Under the pieces are notes generated by a model. The model was not told the DNA's origin and did no database searches. It was given only the letters and a program-made list of their open reading frames with translations. A program made the position numbers and the translations under genes. A stretch of 64,000 nt of DNA from Apoderus coryli (lineage: Eukaryota; Arthropoda; Insecta; Coleoptera; Attelabidae). The stretch is taken from contig OU452205.1 of the NCBI GenBank assembly GCA_911728435.2, positions 17,366,260 to 17,430,259 of the forward strand, given 5' to 3'. Below, in pieces: positions 34,001 to 35,428 of the stretch (within the stretch, counting starts at the first letter, position 1; every line of letters begins with the position of its first letter).

Positions 34001-35428
34001 TATTTCACTAAATTAATGAATAACGTACAGGTTGAAACCTGTGAAACCACTATTTTCGACATCAGGAAATCACTGTATGACAAATAACCACATATTGAAT
34101 GCAAACATGTATTTTTTTCCTGGATTGTGGCCAAAATAAAATATTATATTCAGATCGACCTAGTCGCGTGTATGGCATATTTCATTAAATATTTATTTAC
34201 ATACCTACATTTAATTTAATTTCATTAATCAACTGAGGAGAGTACCTACTATCATGTGTTACAGTTTATTTATAAAAAAACATATGAATGTATAGGTGCG
34301 CACTATAAATACCAATAATATTGTTTTGGCAGCCGATATAGGAACTGTTGTTCTCTCGGCGTACTACCAACGATAAAACTAGATGTCGCCAAACACATCC
34401 TTTTACATCTCTGTACCGTGTGGGGTATATACCACATTATTTACGAGAGTTTGGCTGTCAACTACTGACCGATCACCACTGATGAGTCGTGGATCGACGA
34501 AACGGCCGTCTGGTGAAAGTATAGTGGTTGACAGACAAACTCTCGGATTTTAAGTCTTGTTTTGTTAAACAAGCCCATTTCAAACTAGAGTATTTTCCTA
34601 AAATTAAAAATAGCTAAGTATTGTAATTCCAATTTCCATTACTGACCTTTTCTATAGAACTTTGTGTTTTAGTTTTTTCTTGAACCCTCTTGGTCAATTT
34701 TAACAAATTATTTTATTTTCTTTGGGTTCAGAACTTTGTTTTGGGTTTAGAACTTTGTATTTCAGCTTCAGCGGCCTAATCTAATTTAAGCTTTCTCTTT
34801 TGAAAATGGTTTAACGAAACCAAAGTCTGTTTTGGATTTTGTTTATCGCTCATCGGGGTTCGAAAAAATCTGTAATTCGTAGTAGTACCTACCCACATAA
34901 TTATAGAGTATAGTGAGCTTTATAAAGTAAATTTGTAAACCTATCGCATACGCTTCGCGTACATTTAGCAACACTGAAGAGCGATATTCAACCATCAACA
35001 AAGAAGCATTATCCATAAAGTCATTATTGTTATTATATTTGCCTTTTCCAAGTTTTATTAATACTTGAAAATTGTATTCAACTAAAGTTTTTTTATTTCA
35101 GAATTCCTTAAAACCACATGGTAGAACACTGGTTTATTGCGTAGCCGGTGTAAGTCGTTCTGCAAGCTTATGCCTAGCATATCTGATGAAATACGTTAAC
35201 AATATGTCATTACGGGAAGCATATAATTATTTGAAAATCCGAAGACCACGTATAAAACCGAACTGTGGTTTTTTCAAACAGTTAATTGAATATGAAAAAC
35301 AGTTAACTGGTGCATCAACTGTGAAGATGGTTTATAACGAGTTTGTGCAAATGGATATACCGGAAGTATATGATAGTGAATATAGAGTCGTTGGGAAATT
35401 CAGTAAAAAACATAGAGTTAGGTGTTAA
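971..35428 (+). CDS. DUSP14/18/21-like dual-specificity phosphatase (three-exon gene model)
   Basis: Gene model joining 971-1074, 11170-11461 and 35102-35428 (723 nt, 240 residues plus stop). Phases agree: exon 1 ends after two bases of codon 35, exon 2 supplies the third base, and the exon 2/3 junction falls between codons. The protein is an atypical DUSP that would dephosphorylate Tyr and Ser/Thr residues. Seen: the DUSP core from about residue 56 (SISLVTENLILTSAANVN), the likely general acid Asp113 (KVDVID), the P-loop CVAGVSRS with Cys145 and Arg151, and the tail features KIRRPRIKPNCGF and EKQLTGASTVKMV, which are characteristic of the DUSP14/18/21 group. Length is close to that subfamily's usual ~190-200 residues plus an N-terminal extension. 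Oddity: the residue before the catalytic Cys is Tyr144, where the family motif has His. The introns (10.1 and 23.6 kb) are largely transposons. Substrate is unknown. Confidence 0.85.
1390..4318. mobile_element. inverted-repeat element with internal tandem repeats
   Basis: The left end (1390-1760, starting GTGTTTCATAATATATGCGC) and the right end (about 3990-4318, ending GAAACACCCTG) are inverted copies of each other over roughly 300-350 bp with moderate divergence. For example, CACCCACTAGCGCTTCAAAA at about 4100 is the complement of the segment at about 1632-1655. Between them lies an AT-rich tandem array with no convincing ORF. The ACAGGGTGT-like terminus resembles that of Tc1/mariner-derived nonautonomous elements in this window, but the superfamily is not established. 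It lies in intron 1 of the phosphatase gene. Confidence 0.65.
2100..3960. repeat. ~0.78-kb tandem repeat, about 2.3 copies
   Basis: The segment GAACGCCTGTGTGAACCAGT occurs at 2320 and again at 3101 (781 bp apart), with a diverged third copy at 3903. Text on both sides of these anchors is nearly identical between the first two copies. Each unit is itself built from degenerate sub-repeats of roughly 100-150 bp carrying CTACTATTTACGAACGCCTA, TTTTTTAGGTTAT and TATCAAAGCTATA. The array fills the interior of the inverted-repeat element at 1390-4318. Confidence 0.8.
4521..5700 (-). pseudogene. Tc1/mariner (DD41D-like) transposase relic
   Basis: Read on the - strand, 5688-5443 gives the block ending with the first catalytic region (IVFSDEAHFWLNGYVNK), and 5178-4948 gives the C-terminal catalytic block (FISRLGPVNWPPSSCDL, normally followed by a TPLDYFLWG-type motif; here TRLEYFLLC, so the third acidic residue is altered). 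The part between them, including the second catalytic Asp, is deleted or shifted. At 4521-4540 on the + side is a TACAGGGTGTCCC terminus typical of these insect elements; the opposite terminus is not recognisable. Inactive copy in intron 1. Confidence 0.75.
5701..6455. other. AT-rich intronic DNA, no feature recognised
   Basis: I see no reading frame, paired repeat or RNA signal here beyond simple A/T runs. Confidence 0.5.
6460..7080 (-). pseudogene. possible LINE ORF1 relic (coiled coil)
   Basis: On the - strand, 7080-6898 encodes a charged helical segment (MLRELQNDFKKLKKATDFM, then SENYEEERARSK) of the kind found in the coiled coil of CR1/I-like non-LTR ORF1 proteins. Downstream - strand text is broken by stops. 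No reverse transcriptase follows, so if this is a LINE it is a small fragment. It could also be an unrelated coiled-coil pseudogene. Confidence 0.35.
7081..7606. other. AT-rich intronic DNA, no feature recognised
   Basis: No coding or repeat structure supported. Confidence 0.5.
7609..8377 (-). mobile_element. decayed Tc1/mariner-like element with terminal inverted repeats
   Basis: The left terminus TACAGGGTGTTCGTAAAGTA (from 7607) is mirrored by TTACTTTACGAATACCCT at about 8360-8377. The subterminal GCCACCATCCATCTAAGTCATG (about 7692) is mirrored at about 8218-8240 (CATGACTTAGATGGCGGC). Between them, - strand text around 8090-7920 reads RSPELNPLRLFPMG, a degraded version of the C-terminal SPDLNPLDFFLWG block of a DDE transposase, ending near the left repeat. 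The right end is cut off by the start of the CCCAAC element at 8378. Confidence 0.65.
8378..10983. mobile_element. unclassified CCCAAC...GTTGGG inverted-repeat element
   Basis: The ends CCCAACTAACAATT (8378) and AATTGCTTGTTGGG (ending 10983) form imperfect terminal inverted repeats, and both subterminal regions have the same character: GAAC, then ATATTTTATAA, then many TTTATAAA-type words spaced 20-60 bp apart. The interior (about 8760-10400) has no convincing gene; a - strand stretch near 10260-10130 reads QIFWRLINSQEELLRDGERV but cannot be assigned. No target-site duplication is evident. The superfamily is unknown to me. It lies in intron 1 and abuts a damaged Tc1/mariner end. Confidence 0.5.
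11170..11461 (+). CDS. DUSP-like gene, exon 2
   Basis: Acceptor TTTTTAG at 11163-11169, donor GTGAGC at 11462. The exon begins with the third base of codon 35 (Ser) and ends on a codon boundary after Gln132. It encodes the first half of the phosphatase domain: SISLVTENLILTSAANVN, then GVTCIINAAPELPD, then KVDVIDSSNS with Asp113 as the likely general acid. These match the DUSP14/18/21 pattern of a beta strand, an INA(T/A) turn and an acid loop. Confidence 0.85.
11704..11889 (+). repeat. copia 5' LTR
   Basis: 186 bp, TG...CA, preceded by the target duplication AGCAA. It matches the 3' LTR at every position I compared. Confidence 0.95.
11890..11907 (+). promoter_or_regulatory. copia primer binding site (half-tRNA type)
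   Basis: GGTTATGGGCCCAG immediately after the 5' LTR is complementary to the anticodon arm of initiator tRNA-Met (CTGGGCCCATAACC). This is the internal half-tRNA priming known for copia-type elements. Confidence 0.9.
12022..12411 (+). pseudogene. gag-integrase deletion fusion (copia)
   Basis: A 129-codon frame starting at an ATG. Residues 1-76 are the N-terminus of a copia Gag (LKRNNYDTWKLQAEALL). From about residue 78 it turns directly into the second half of integrase (DGTEYCNKEF, then TSQQNGLAERKNRTL, with a conserved catalytic Glu region). The junction near 12255 is in frame, as expected for a clean internal deletion. The frame then ends at a frameshift (near 12400-12411); integrase sequence resumes in another frame (AEAVNTANYLVNRS). 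The first part of gag, the protease and the integrase zinc finger are absent. Confidence 0.85.
12548..13471 (+). pseudogene. copia integrase C-terminus and N-terminal half of reverse transcriptase
   Basis: 307 codons, open in one frame but without a real start; the frame is already open upstream from about 12412. Seen: the integrase C-terminal region (KTKQGIFMGYSEISKGYRIW), an acidic linker, then the copia reverse transcriptase start (KKARLVARGFAQ, then QMDVTTAYLNGELEEEIFME), which includes the first catalytic Asp region. A frameshift near 13455-13471 cuts the frame; the RT continues in another frame (ACLLKKALYGLKQAGRQWYK at 13477 onward). Confidence 0.9.
13594..14574 (+). pseudogene. copia reverse transcriptase C-terminus and RNase H
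   Basis: Open from about 13564 after a one-base change in an A-run near 13551-13560. It carries the catalytic YVDD box (AVYVDDIFIAS), the RT thumb (GTRPDISFAVSYLSQF) and an RNase H domain with DADWA, STAESEYMAL, a DNQTA box and HIDIRQHF. It stops 16 bases before the 3' LTR. The domain itself looks complete; only the frame linkage to the upstream part is broken. Confidence 0.92.
14591..14776 (+). repeat. copia 3' LTR
   Basis: Same 186 bp as the 5' LTR, followed by the target duplication AGCAA and preceded by a purine-rich tract. Confidence 0.95.
14782..15615. other. intron 2 sequence, no feature recognised
   Basis: Mixed-composition intronic DNA. I see no coding frame with family resemblance and no paired repeats. 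Confidence 0.5.
15618..15800 (-). repeat. dispersed MITE-like repeat, copy 1
   Basis: The segment from GGGTGTCCCAAACTCGGCGC through GGCCTATTGTATGAAATCAG and TAATAAAAATCTTTTT is the reverse complement, with divergence, of the segment at about 21730-21835 (CATACAATAGGCCTGGGGCG). The GGGTGTCCC edge resembles a transposon terminus. Confidence 0.55.
15801..17200. other. intron 2 sequence, no gene recognised
   Basis: AT-rich DNA. A short segment at about 16385-16430 (GATGCCGCCATTTTGGGTTA) recurs inverted at about 21325-21345, so a decayed repeat pair probably spans here to 21.3 kb. Nothing else is supported. Confidence 0.4.
17201..18019. mobile_element. hairpin-headed element with ~170-bp direct repeats (family member 1)
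   Basis: A ~170-bp segment occurs twice, at 17201-17370 and 17850-18019 (649 bp apart), with essentially one difference (GTCGCC versus GTCGTC). Each copy starts AGTATATTAAGTAT and contains nested inverted arms: CAGTAAGTGTAGTTTACCGA / TCGGTAAACTACTTACTG outside, GGCGACT / AGTCGCC inside (GTCGTC in copy 2), and GAGCGAAGCGA at the tip. Each continues to TATACTATTTTTTGTACGAT. Before the second copy, ATCGTACAAAATAGTATA (about 17839-17855) is the inverse of that segment, so the 17325-17855 body has inverted ends. Another palindrome (CTTACCGTTC / GAACGGTAAG) lies at about 17724-17750. Confidence 0.7.
17543..17647 (+). CDS. 34-residue ORF, possibly the N-terminus of a Crypton-type recombinase
   Basis: A short frame (MSDFECESLDEAWNVGIAAI, then IPENGMKMLIKVHT) lies inside the hairpin element. 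Acidic starts of the type SLDEAW...IPEKS.K.Y are, as I recall them, found at the N-terminus of insect Crypton/KIAA1958-like tyrosine-recombinase proteins. The catalytic domain is absent and the frame ends after 34 codons, so this would be an internal deletion derivative. The similarity is a judgement from memory, not a search. Confidence 0.3.
   Translation: MSDFECESLDEAWNVGIAAIIPENGMKMLIKVHT
18110..18870. repeat. degenerate array with recurring ACCCTGTATA units
   Basis: The pattern CACCCTGTATA, then ATGTATGA or similar, then CCATTCTAAC, then AAAA recurs at about 18160, 18300, 18390 (decayed), 18715 and in part at 18585 and 18835. It reads as several diverged copies of the same ~100-150 bp unit, possibly a cluster of decayed short transposon ends. 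No coding content. Confidence 0.45.
18871..21720. other. intron 2 sequence, no gene recognised
   Basis: AT-rich. Two observations: a stem at about 19130-19180 (GTGAGGCAAAG / CTTTGCCTCGCCTCAC), and a diverged direct duplication with CGGATTGATTACGCTATTGC at 20223 and a near copy at about 20473 (250 bp apart). Short ORFs here look like chance. Confidence 0.4.
21730..22312. mobile_element. MITE-like inverted-repeat element, copy 2
   Basis: The right end (reverse complement from 22312: TACAGGGTGGCCCAAATT, then TTCTTATGGGAACTAATC) and the left segment at 21828-21890 (TTCTTATGGGAACTCATG, then ACCGAAAAAGTGACA) are inverted relatives. The outer left part matches the inverted copy at 15618-15800. No coding capacity. 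It resembles a short nonautonomous Tc1/mariner derivative. Confidence 0.5.
22440..22770 (-). mobile_element. LINE 3' end fragment
   Basis: An (AAT)n microsatellite next to AAAGGACTTTTATTGCAAAT reads, on the - strand, as the typical GCAATAAAAGTCC-(TTA)n terminus of a CR1/I-like non-LTR element. The remaining ~300 bp carries no recognisable reverse transcriptase motif, so it is probably 3' UTR. Confidence 0.45.
22814..25523 (+). mobile_element. DD41D Tc1/mariner element with ~0.7-kb terminal inverted repeats
   Basis: Flanked by TA (22812-22813 and 25524-25525) with termini CAGGGTGTCC...GGACACCCTG. The inverted repeats run from 22814 to about 23480 and from about 24850 to 25523, and include the palindromic ACTTCCGGTTATACCGGAAGT. 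Inside each repeat, a second TA-CAGGGTGG terminus appears (23238-23248, and 25089-25099 in inverse). Between the repeats is a broken transposase gene. It lies in sense orientation in intron 2 of the phosphatase gene. Confidence 0.85.
23535..24516 (+). pseudogene. DD41D transposase, two lesions
   Basis: The N-terminal piece (23535-23801) has a helix-turn-helix-like segment (SVRAAEQDLGISKSYVQKIL). A frameshift in a T-run at about 23795-23800 and an in-frame TGA at 23875-23877 separate it from the catalytic piece, open to 24516. Catalytic acidic residues are seen at WTDESKF, RLDGAPPH and SPDLSPLDF; the last two have 41 residues between them, the spacing of the DD41D (rosa-like) group of Tc1/mariner transposases. 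The C-terminus is intact to HIEQLN. With two lesions the copy is probably dead, but few other changes are visible. Confidence 0.88.
25526..26435. other. intron 2 sequence, no feature recognised
   Basis: AT-rich DNA. Short open frames on the - strand (25666-26065) have no family resemblance. Confidence 0.5.
26437..26525. repeat. solo fragment of the DD41D terminal repeat
   Basis: CACTTCCGGTTATACCGGAA, then GTTGAT.TCAACTTTCTTATT, then ATATTTTTGGATTC is a diverged copy of the terminal repeat segment at about 22940-23030, present here without the rest of the element. Confidence 0.7.
26646..29722 (-). mobile_element. pogo-superfamily DNA transposon
   Basis: The terminal inverted repeats AAGGTAAGGTGGGGTAAGAG (26646) and CTCTTACCCCACCTTACCTT (ending 29722) are near perfect and flanked by TA, the known target of pogo elements. 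Subterminal copies of GGGGCAAGTGCG (or its inverse, CGCACTTGCCCC) occur at about 26848, 29279 and 29352, with related GGGGC words nearby; these are candidate transposase-binding sites. It carries one transposase gene on the - strand, broken once. Inserted in intron 2, antisense to the host gene. Confidence 0.9.
27183..29235 (-). pseudogene. pogo-like transposase (one frameshift)
   Basis: The - strand frame 29367-28204 holds the catalytic part. The likely start is the internal ATG at 29235 (MVRKYIRKSK), because the upstream 44 codons run through subterminal repeats. Residue numbers count from 29367: psq/pogo helix-turn-helix at about 58-98 (GYSPEILKLAVTYVRNGI), CENP-B-type DNA-binding region at about 115-190, then DDE_1 with Asp224 (WNMDESSF), Asp334 (YDGHATH) and Asp370 (LLQPLDLSVF), 35 residues between the last two. 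A frameshift near 28200 ends the frame. The following - strand text (IPKSTFSKLIGEIW and onward) continues open into the 28019-27183 frame, an acidic C-terminal tail of about 340 residues including that link. Apart from this lesion the gene looks intact. Confidence 0.88.
29770..30170 (-). pseudogene. DD41D-like transposase C-terminal relic
   Basis: On the - strand, about 30165-30030 reads WYQLDGAPAHCTDEVTHELM, then FQDRWFRRLCPWDWPAN, aligning with the second catalytic Asp block of the element at 23.5-24.5 kb. The rest is broken by stops but still shows SKEELCEGIRSYISQLDAEE and a terminal NGGHFE-like remnant. A separate, older copy of the same group, without recognisable ends. Confidence 0.7.
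30170..30480 (+). pseudogene. jockey-like reverse transcriptase fragment
   Basis: The text GGQLNVIFTNFAKAVLMGKL, then YKSYYFGTCGVPQ, matches RT motifs A and B of jockey-like LINEs (normally YTDFSKAFD and SGVPQGS). A segment after FAKA is deleted and the second catalytic box is absent. Truncated at both ends. Confidence 0.65.
30481..31500. other. intron 2 sequence, no feature recognised
   Basis: AT-rich DNA with no paired repeat or coding frame that I can support. Confidence 0.5.
31507..33687 (+). CDS. jockey-like LINE ORF2, 5'-truncated (reverse transcriptase)
   Basis: A 726-codon open frame without a true start: homology to its relative at 51.5-53.8 kb begins at about 31515-31560 (ERFYYDFKSADFESLN), so the ATG is incidental. 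Seen in order: RT linker (KRFPRWYSLEVKQLI), motif 1-2 region (SAGPDGIPALLLRNCSF), fingers (NYRPVCILNSIPKLFE), palm motif A (YTDFSKAFDSVNH), motif B (SSGVPQGSHLGPLLF), catalytic FADD (LFADDLKCY), thumb and the conserved C-terminal region. The endonuclease and ORF1 are missing, as expected from incomplete target-primed reverse transcription. Uninterrupted and more GC-rich than the surrounding intron, consistent with a recent insertion. The protein could not support mobility on its own. Confidence 0.9.
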   Translation: MVVHIPFRTHKVASSRQAERFYYDFKSADFESLNDRLGGIRWDFLLSHRSVDDMVDTFYHILFDAFKVFVPKKRCSSKRFPRWYSLEVKQLIFEKKRAHKRYKITGSQTHYADFSRLRSECNRLSRVCYMSFTNAIESELPQNIGAFWRFINSKRGSSDLPSRLSWGERTSDADQCGADLFAAYFESVYNDRCLDSPVGCVGDTLVNVSDHHISLSDILEAIVGLEVRKSAGPDGIPALLLRNCSFSLARPLQIIFNHSVSTGTFPVLWKTSFITPIFKSGNRNEVTNYRPVCILNSIPKLFENLITRYLTAALGPLVISDQFGFQAGKSTELNLLEFTNYLSRALEHGYQVHAIYTDFSKAFDSVNHRLLIEKLGIVGVSAPMLDWLGSYLCGRTQVVRINEFHSRPILVSSGVPQGSHLGPLLFNLFVNDIAQCFVHSEIKLFADDLKCYRRIAGPSDCYLLQEDVIRLVHWCEANGLDLNISKCFCVNFNRTRDPLFHGYFIDRDALDYKTLVKDLGVYLDSSLSYTDHIRRATSRSVKMLGFTRRCSGDFSQIGTFRALYTSLVRPHLEYAFAVWSPSYVCHTVCIERVQHRFLRYVHFRLGRERPVDFNFNYGVLLSELELATLGARRVVRDLTILYKILNNTLLACSLLSQIGFRVPPRQSRSSDLFHVSFHRANYAMNTFVTRVVRLANRCSNHNIDFFAPFGEFAGRLRRGSRDEWFP
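33688..33938 (+). repeat. LINE 3' UTR with (AAATA)n tail
   Basis: The 3' UTR of the LINE ends in TTAATAAATAAATAAATAAA at about 33918-33937, a short tandem tail like those left by target-primed reverse transcription. Confidence 0.7.
33940..34323. other. intron 2 sequence, no feature recognised
   Basis: AT-rich DNA, nothing supported. Confidence 0.5.
34324..34550 (+). repeat. repeat carrying a hammerhead ribozyme
   Basis: The first part (TTGGCAGCCGATATAGGAAC to CTAGATGTCGCCAAA) has a diverged relative at about 35895-35997, which also ends in CTAGATGTCGCCAAA, so this is a dispersed repeat. The second part is a self-complementary block: CGAGAGTTTGGCTGTCAACT (from 34444) pairs with the arm at 34524-34545 over 22 positions with about one mismatch and one G-U. 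The hammerhead core lies between the arms. Confidence 0.7.
34473..34516 (+). ncRNA. type I hammerhead self-cleaving ribozyme
   Basis: All invariant elements are present in order. Stem I is TCACCA (34473-34478) with TGGTGA (34511-34516), six perfect pairs. The core CTGATGA is at 34479-34485. Stem II is GTCG (34486-34489) with CGAC (34495-34498), closed by a five-base loop. Core GAAA is at 34499-34502 (the last A begins stem III). Stem III is the self-complementary ACGGCCGT (34502-34509), and C34510 is the cleavage-site nucleotide. Stem I continues outward, after an internal loop, into the 22-bp arms at 34444-34465 and 34524-34545; natural hammerheads often have such a loop for contact with loop II. 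Stem III is minimal and palindromic, as in type I hammerheads of animal repeats, which may act as dimers. Activity is inferred, not shown. Confidence 0.9.
34551..35101. other. end of intron 2, no feature recognised
   Basis: Intronic DNA ending in a pyrimidine tract and the acceptor TTTATTTCAG before exon 3. Confidence 0.55.
35102..35428 (+). CDS. DUSP-like gene, exon 3 (catalytic exon)
   Basis: Begins on a codon boundary after TTTATTTCAG and encodes residues 133-240. It contains the phosphate-binding loop: TLVYCVAGVSRSASLCLAYL, with the nucleophile Cys145 and Arg151, where the family consensus is HC rather than YC. The REAYNYLKIRRPRIKPNCGF helix-turn and the C-terminal EKQLTGASTVKMV extension follow, both diagnostic of the DUSP14/18/21 subgroup. 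The stop TAA (35426-35428) overlaps an AATAAA at 35428-35433; another AATAAA lies at 35644-35649 and is a more reasonable polyadenylation signal. Confidence 0.9.
   Translation, partial: NSLKPHGRTLVYCVAGVSRSASLCLAYLMKYVNNMSLREAYNYLKIRRPRIKPNCGFFKQLIEYEKQLTGASTVKMVYNEFVQMDIPEVYDSEYRVVGKFSKKHRVRC

What the first reader, a model, noticed from the sequence alone, without database searches (positions are those of the whole stretch)
34444..34545. A complete hammerhead ribozyme in a dispersed repeat inside a phosphatase intron
Every conserved core element (CTGATGA, GAAA, C before the cleavage bond) and all three stems are present. Stem I extends through an internal loop into 22-bp arms. The palindromic four-pair stem III (ACGGCCGT) is the minimal type seen in animal repeat-borne hammerheads, where two copies may cooperate. 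Type I hammerheads in animals are known from satellite repeats, Penelope-like elements and retrozymes. Which element carries this one is unclear, and its relative at 35.9 kb lacks the core. Being in sense orientation, it could cut the phosphatase pre-mRNA in intron 2.
Basis: partly seen in the sequence, partly recalled or inferred. Interest (0 to 1): 0.87.

Follow-up and report, generated by a model that had tools for sequence, protein, structure and literature searches.

The report
Beetle hammerhead retrozyme with Penelope footprint
The self-cutting RNA motif in this beetle intron is one truncated copy of a 333-base mobile RNA element present in thousands of copies, and the scars it leaves on insertion match those of Penelope retrotransposons in the same genome, which points to the enzyme that moves such elements in animals.

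Summary
Observation confirmed. A type I hammerhead lies at 34473-34516 (+): Rfam RF00163 33.8 bits, 0.2 under the gathering cut-off, E=1.2e-4 over the window. It sits in a 257-bp copy (34328-34584) of a 333-bp non-coding unit. The genome (a beetle's) holds 2,403 exact matches to the core pattern (backward control 0), in tandem (period 332-336 bp) and head to head. A second family shares 47 of 47 core positions but 156 of 274 others. This is the animal retrozyme class.

New here is the insertion anatomy. Outward ends of family A fall in two unit intervals (66 of 66); 24 of 24 clean head-to-head insertions have one end of each kind; 25 of 26 carry a target duplication of 8 bp or more. Penelope-like elements of this genome follow the same rule (15 of 15). 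A neighbouring LINE shows no facing pairs (0 of 40 copies). Best reading: a Penelope-like enzyme copies the ribozyme-made circle from two start sites, one primed by each cut target strand. Cleavage, circles and enzyme were not assayed; start-site sequences of the two elements are not significantly alike. A role in the phosphatase gene is unsupported.

The parts
34328..34584 (+). Retrozyme family A copy, one-armed and 5'-truncated: unit positions 151-333 then 1-74, 98.4% identical to unit A; outward end at site 1
   Evidence: blastn with unit A taken from L018; no target duplication found for this copy
34473..34516 (+). Type I hammerhead core; predicted cleavage between 34510 and 34511
   Evidence: Rfam RF00163 33.8 bits, E=1.2e-4
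34444..34545 (+). Hairpin made by the extended stem I (arms 34444-34478 and 34511-34545)
   Evidence: inverted repeat, fold z=-7.97; 11 of 30 stem I pairs changed on both sides between families A and B, 3 broken
34570..34584 (+). Site 1 region (unit about 60-79), where the copy ends
   Evidence: 35 of 66 family A outward ends lie at u60-89
34406..34417 (+). Site 2 region (unit about 229-240), the other end used in sibling insertions
   Evidence: 31 of 66 family A outward ends lie at u220-245; window position computed from unit 151 = 34328
35777..36167 (+). Older copy related to retrozyme family B with a decayed hammerhead core
   Evidence: 35814-36089 is 85% identical to unit B u37-311; longer gapped alignment 35777-36167
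35102..35428 (+). Last coding exon of the dual-specificity phosphatase host gene, downstream of the element
   Evidence: Pfam DSPc; borders by eye

Best explanation
The hammerhead belongs to a truncated genomic copy of a non-autonomous retrozyme. Inferred cycle: tandem copies are transcribed, the hammerhead cuts the RNA into 333-nt units and a host ligase closes them into circles (by analogy with published animal retrozymes). A Penelope-like enzyme (reverse transcriptase plus GIY-YIG nuclease) encoded elsewhere in this beetle genome cuts both strands of an A+T-rich target about 12 bp apart. Each freed 3' end primes reverse transcription on the retrozyme RNA, one at site 1 (about u69-79), the other at site 2 (about u229-240). 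Each copies for a variable distance, often more than once round, and the two cDNAs are joined, giving a head-to-head array with two different outward ends and a target duplication. Shown from sequence: the unit, tandem and inverted arrays, two fixed ends, one of each per insertion, duplications, A+T-rich targets, conserved RNA structure, and intact-frame Penelope-like elements with the same anatomy. Inferred: cleavage, circles, the enzyme's identity, the joining step, and one template for both arms. The window copy is a one-armed product.
For: 40 full-length 100% identical siblings among 40 scored of 1,253 candidates; 2,403 core matches, control 0. Family B keeps 28 of 28 core positions not imposed by my pattern, against 156 of 274 elsewhere, p=4e-7; 11 of 30 stem I pairs changed on both sides; stem II covariation, 13 of 14 by eye in the listing. 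Outward ends at two intervals only: family A 66 of 66, family B 26 of 27. One end of each kind: family A 24 of 24 clean, family B 8 of 10. Duplications of 8 bp or more: 25 of 26 against 41 of 650 mismatched pairs; family B 8 of 17 (one- and two-armed together) against 9 of 272. 12 of 24 site-1 arms and 8 of 24 site-2 arms exceed one unit. Arms of one insertion are closer to each other (median 1.0%, 18 insertions) than to other insertions (2.9%, 954 pairs), p=3.6e-6 with non-independent pairs. Penelope-like elements: GIY-YIG over cut-off in 150 of 150 scored of 1,260 candidates, RVT_1 plus GIY-YIG in one 752-aa frame, head-to-head with one tailed and one tail-less end in 15 of 15 insertions, duplications 11-14 bp. 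LINE control: no facing pair among 40 scored copies of 452 candidates. Published in vitro work: a lizard Penelope-like protein cuts and extends both strands and starts internally at two sites (PMC11167929, parts 1-2 of 4).
Against: No assay and no RNA data: cleavage and circles are not shown. The minimum-energy fold hides the hammerhead by 8.7 kcal/mol. No significant sequence likeness between retrozyme and Penelope-like start sites (p 0.25-0.85). In the lizard study the two start sites lie close together and did not differ between strands, whereas here they are about 157 nt apart in the unit and used one per end. One-armed insertions mostly lack duplications (2 of 12), so they need another route or loss of an arm. 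Two of 10 family B head-to-head insertions do not fit (region 14, two site-1 ends; region 37, one end elsewhere). 24 of 113 predicted pairs of circle A are broken in B. The joints of 11 of 24 insertions hold 1-25 unassigned bases and only 12 show 1-7 bases of overlap. The clean set was chosen by hand from non-random loci on two contigs.
Confidence: 0.8

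Rival explanations
1. A LINE enzyme mobilises the retrozyme, and the inversions are ordinary twin priming on its RNA.
For: LINEs with RVT_1 frames are abundant, several in the window; twin priming is a known LINE by-product (recalled); published retrozyme papers leave LINEs open. Half of the joints (12 of 24) show 1-7 nt of overlap.
Against: Two fixed start sites with one of each in 24 of 24 insertions are not expected of LINE twin priming; one LINE family tested shows no facing pairs among 40 scored copies, though that query stopped short of its tail and only one LINE family was tested; Penelope-like elements here share the anatomy.
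Confidence: 0.1
2. A satellite or fold-back DNA element that spreads as DNA; the hammerhead is incidental.
For: Inverted arrays and tandem repeats.
Against: The two outward ends differ in sequence instead of forming a terminal inverted repeat; inner ends vary; compensatory changes and an invariant core point to RNA.
Confidence: 0.03
3. A functional intronic hammerhead that regulates the phosphatase by cutting its pre-mRNA.
For: Sense orientation, intact core, same intron as the DSPc exons.
Against: One of thousands of dispersed copies, 5'-truncated, in a 23.6-kb intron that also holds a LINE frame; no expression or conservation data.
Confidence: 0.04

Closest known systems
Metazoan non-LTR retrozymes (PMC7229834; passages and Discussion seen)
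   Same: Type I hammerhead in a non-coding unit of about 170-400 nt, tandem copies, no LTR, low G+C, target duplications longer than 4 bp
   Different: Head-to-head arrays with two fixed outward ends, one of each per insertion; the words 'inverted', 'orientation', 'head-to' and 'priming' do not occur in the main text of that paper. Expression as circles not shown here
Penelope-like elements with GIY-YIG nuclease (PMC11167929 parts 1-2 of 4; PMC3846280 passages)
   Same: Head-to-head structure, short target duplications, a tail at one of the two ends, A+T-rich targets, type I hammerheads; in this genome the same paired-end rule and duplications of 11-14 bp
   Different: Retrozyme has no room for the protein, a larger distance between start sites, and no significant start-site sequence likeness
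Plant LTR retrozymes (PMC7229834 and PMC7761336 passages)
   Same: Hammerhead-bearing non-autonomous retroelement thought to move through circles
   Different: Type III hammerheads in LTRs, tRNA primer-binding site, 4-bp duplications; Gypsy elements proposed as partner
LINE-1-type twin priming (recalled, no call)
   Same: Inverted 5' portions and short overlaps at joints
   Different: Not known to use two fixed internal start sites with one per end

Membership tests
Hammerhead ribozyme, type I | Conserved core and three helices in type I order | tested here: met
   stem III only two pairs within one molecule
Hammerhead ribozyme, type I | Rfam gathering score (a curation cut-off, not a biochemical feature) | tested here: not met
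   33.8 against 34, E=1.2e-4; ten sibling hammerheads in L018 and L065 also 32.3-33.8
Hammerhead ribozyme, type I | Self-cleavage | not testable with these tools
   no assay; fold prediction favours an alternative by 8.7 kcal/mol
Hammerhead ribozyme, type I | Loop-loop tertiary contacts | not tested
   an internal loop in stem I and a 5-nt loop II exist; contacts were not modelled
Metazoan non-LTR retrozyme | Non-coding unit of about 170-400 nt bounded by the hammerhead cut | tested here: met
   333 and 336 bp
Metazoan non-LTR retrozyme | Tandem copies from dimers to multimers | tested here: met
   arms up to 1,710 bp, about five units; the window copy itself is less than one unit
Metazoan non-LTR retrozyme | Low G+C (under 45-50% in the paper) | tested here: met
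   45.3% for unit A; meets the 50% of the text, marginal to the 45% of the figure legend
Metazoan non-LTR retrozyme | Expression as linear and circular RNA | not testable with these tools
   no RNA data
Metazoan non-LTR retrozyme | Target duplications longer than 4 bp when present | tested here: met
   25 of 26 head-to-head family A insertions at 8 bp or more; none found for the window copy
Penelope-type integration (works like) | Head-to-head products with one tailed and one tail-less end plus a short duplication | tested here: met
   retrozyme 24 of 24 clean, Penelope-like elements 15 of 15
Penelope-type integration (works like) | Start-site sequence shared with the element's own enzyme source | tested here: not met
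   no significant likeness to two families tested
Penelope-like element (member) | Frame for reverse transcriptase and GIY-YIG nuclease | tested here: not met
   a 333-bp unit cannot hold a 752-aa frame such as that of L087; not filed as a member

The most novel reading that the evidence does not exclude
Penelope-like enzymes perform a symmetric, two-ended target-primed reverse transcription: both cut target strands prime on one and the same circular RNA, at two dedicated start sites exposed in its central loop, and the two cDNAs meet. This would explain at once the head-to-head structure and the one-sided tail of Penelope elements, and would identify Penelope as the mobiliser of animal retrozymes.
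Probability: 0.5. Interest if true: 0.85.

Novelty: new variant of a known kind. Interest (0 to 1): 0.72.

Why it matters
A 2020 review says that animal retrozyme repeats show no conserved motif from which the autonomous partner could be deduced, and Penelope-like elements were proposed by co-occurrence and shared ribozymes (PMC7761336 passages; PMC7229834 Discussion). Here the insertions themselves carry a footprint that Penelope-like elements of the same genome share. That turns an open question into a direct in vitro test with a defined RNA, two defined start sites and candidate enzymes, and offers an explanation for the odd head-to-head structure of Penelope elements. It also shows that two sampled arrays of a family with thousands of copies score just under the Rfam cut-off, so gathering-threshold annotation would miss them.

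Tried and rejected
Exact core and flank patterns in viral contigs found nothing, nor did a distant blastn of 34240-34900 against phage records. A first guess of a moth genome was wrong: the best-scoring named phosphatase relatives are beetles. A first guess that the repeat is a LINE untranslated region was dropped: the LINE upstream ends at about 33937 by eye and sibling copies define a separate unit. Likeness of retrozyme and Penelope-like start sites is not significant (p 0.25-0.85); a shared CGCCAAA seen by eye is therefore not used. Rfam lists no hammerhead in L087/L088 at E<=1; at E<=10 L088 gets 18.3 bits, E=3.1; the minimal hammerheads of the Penelope-like elements were found by pattern and eye.

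Literature searches (open-licence papers only): 'retrozyme'+'twin priming' 0 papers; 'retrozyme'+'Lepidoptera' 1; 'retrozyme' since 2020, 27 listed; 'hammerhead ribozyme'+'Coleoptera' 5 listed, none about a beetle retrozyme by title; 'retrozyme'+'inverted'+'Penelope' 5 listed, of which PMC7761336 and PMC6431247 were opened as passages and PMC11722881, PMC4918200, PMC8969392 were not opened. PMC8490949 was seen as passages. So 'not described before' means not seen in these.

Rows dropped: of 63 regions (62 genome, 1 window), 24 were taken by hand as clean head-to-head family A. Regions 4 and 50 are head-to-head, complex, and fit the end rule; region 8 runs off its locus; 29, 30, 58 are mosaics; 13 are one-armed (6, 9, 10, 12, 21, 24, 33, 40, 51, 52, 55, 57, window; 9 not in the duplication test); 17 are family B; 23, 44, 45 unassigned. 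The end intervals u60-89 and u220-245 were set after seeing the ends. Genome copies come from C1 and C5 only, chosen by best match or by position. Of 10 Penelope-like insertions fetched as ends, one (L091/L092) had its left end not located; of 4 of a second family, 2 had both ends locatable. Four of the 15 are judged from match coordinates alone; L087 and L088, with their 12-bp duplications, were read by eye.

Full report
What is there. Rfam Hammerhead_1 gives 33.8 bits against a gathering cut-off of 34, E=1.2e-4 over the whole window; no other family reaches E=1 there and none reaches its gathering score. A loose core pattern occurs once, and in 0 of 100 shuffles. The stem I arms form a strong hairpin (z=-7.97). 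Two caveats: within one molecule stem III can have only two pairs, and the predicted minimum-energy fold is an alternative 8.7 kcal/mol below the hammerhead secondary structure, tertiary contacts not counted.

Which element. A search of the window's own 428-Mb assembly with 34430-34560 gave 44 matches from 40 scored of 1,253 candidates; 40 are full length and 100% identical (the best are listed, so this says nothing of the average copy). The pattern CTGATGAGTCN7GACGAAACG occurs 1,188 + 1,215 times, its backward control 0 + 0; a looser pattern 3,405 times, control 1. Copies lie in tandem with a period of 332-336 bp and in opposite orientation. The window copy is 34328-34584: unit position 151 through the cleavage point to 74, 98.4% identical to unit A. 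The genome is taken as a beetle's because the best-scoring named relatives of its phosphatase are beetles (that these names are beetles is recalled).

Two families. Family B (336 bp, from L065) is 63% identical to A in ungapped columns, yet all 47 positions of the hammerhead region are identical, including 28 of 28 not imposed by my search pattern, against 156 of 274 elsewhere (p=4e-7). In the predicted circular fold of A, 11 of 30 stem I pairs are changed on both sides in B, 3 on one side, 13 unchanged, 3 broken; over the whole fold 24 of 113 pairs are broken. Among the places listed (a small part of 3,405), 13 of 14 copies with U at the third pair of stem II have A opposite, and three more show C-A (counted by eye). 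This is what selection for a folded RNA leaves. The second window copy, 35777-36167, is a decayed relative of family B.

Insertion anatomy. Sixty-three regions were annotated with unit A and 23 of these with unit B. The 66 outward ends of 40 family A insertions fall at u60-89 (35) or u220-245 (31), none elsewhere, while inner ends are spread. In 24 of 24 clean head-to-head insertions one outward end is of each kind; with independent, equally likely ends the chance is about 6e-8. In family B 8 of 10 head-to-head insertions fit; region 14 has two site-1 ends but shares its inner junction and following sequence with region 13, which fits, and region 37 has one end elsewhere. Exact duplications of 8 bp or more flank 25 of 26 family A head-to-head insertions against 41 of 650 mismatched pairs; one-armed insertions 2 of 12 against 0 of 132. 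Most are 12-15 bp, and may include bases shared with the element end. Family B, one- and two-armed together: 8 of 17 against 9 of 272. Duplications are 86% A+T against 65% for the loci. Twelve of 24 site-1 arms and eight of 24 site-2 arms exceed one unit, as expected for copying round a circle or along a multimer. At the joints, 12 of 24 show 1-7 nt of overlap, one none, and 11 hold 1-25 unassigned bases. The two arms of an insertion are closer to each other (median 1.0%, 18 insertions with enough overlap) than to other insertions (2.9%); in 8 of 18 no other arm is closer. In the predicted circles site 2 is in the most unpaired 2% (A) and 0.3% (B) of 12-nt windows, site 1 in the top 10% and 8%.

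Penelope-like elements. A GIY-YIG search gives 1,260 candidates, 150 of 150 scored over the cut-off, many in facing pairs. L087 holds two arms of 2,405 nt, head to head with 28 nt between, with open frames of 734 and 752 aa; the latter has RVT_1 and GIY-YIG. A minimal hammerhead motif lies in the 3' region. One arm ends at GTCAGTTT and the other runs on by a tail; L088 is alike. In ten further insertions, nine had both ends located, and 9 of 9 have one tail-less and one tailed end (tail about 34 nt), with duplications of 11-14 bp. Four more facing pairs show it by match coordinates: 15 of 15. In that listing 34 of 43 matches have the tail. A second family shows the rule in 2 of 2 locatable insertions, duplications 14 and 12 bp. 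Among the listed places, facing neighbours within 6 kb are 5'-to-5': 8 against 0 for the retrozyme (8 more in the same orientation), 7 against 0 for the Penelope-like 3' ends. As a control, the LINE family beside the window copy has no neighbour within 6 kb among 40 scored of 452 candidates (distances by eye); this query stops before the LINE's tail and lists the best matches, so it speaks to facing pairs, not to end classes.

Literature. PMC11167929 (parts 1-2 of 4): a lizard Penelope-like protein cleaves and extends both target strands and starts internally at two adjacent sites not homologous to the cut DNA; the genomic tail is the stretch between them. There the start sites did not differ between strands, unlike the strict one-of-each seen in these insertions. 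PMC3846280 (passages): head-to-head terminal repeats, duplications of 8-10 bp, an optional tail at one of the inverted repeats; its authors favoured self-priming. PMC7229834 (passages and Discussion) and PMC7761336 (passages) define animal retrozymes and propose Penelope-like elements as mobiliser.

Mechanism. I take the insertions as products of two target-primed reverse transcriptions, one from each cut strand, on a retrozyme RNA with two start sites, followed by joining. Head-to-head arrays with different ends, duplications and variable joints follow from that. Not shown: cleavage, circularity, the enzyme, and whether both reactions use one molecule. The lack of start-site sequence likeness leaves open which Penelope-like family is the partner; recognition may be structural.

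The gene. The copy sits in sense in a 23.6-kb intron, about 590 nt upstream of the last exon of a dual-specificity phosphatase. I see no evidence that it serves the gene.

Verdict. The element is an animal retrozyme with an insertion anatomy that I did not find described in the papers searched, and that anatomy points to Penelope-like enzymes.

Noticed in passing
L087:1509-6346, L088:1101-2608, L109, L113, L114, L118: Several Penelope-like insertions are near-perfect palindromes: equal arms of 2,405 and 740 nt with 28 nt between, and 4 of 10 fetched midpoints have exact arms of 74-141 nt around loops of 8-35 nt. Equal arms suggest fold-back copying, unlike the retrozyme joints.
   Followed up: partly
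window 36079-36165 and 48202-48285 (-): A shared 88-column repeat (80% identical) overlaps the decayed core of the second retrozyme copy, so an older retrozyme-like family without a working hammerhead may exist.
   Followed up: no
window 31480-33687, 36647-39597 (-), 49892-53811, 57854-61532: Several LINE-like frames; RVT_1 was confirmed for 31480-33684 and 51439-53808 and a PHD finger for 49892-50965. The others are read from their translations.
   Followed up: partly
window 35700-35790 (-): Looks like a tRNA-derived SINE head on the minus strand (seen by eye; no tRNA search was run).
   Followed up: no
L018:2753-2876: A long perfect-looking hairpin matches many microRNA families below their cut-offs on both strands; probably a palindromic repeat.
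   Followed up: no
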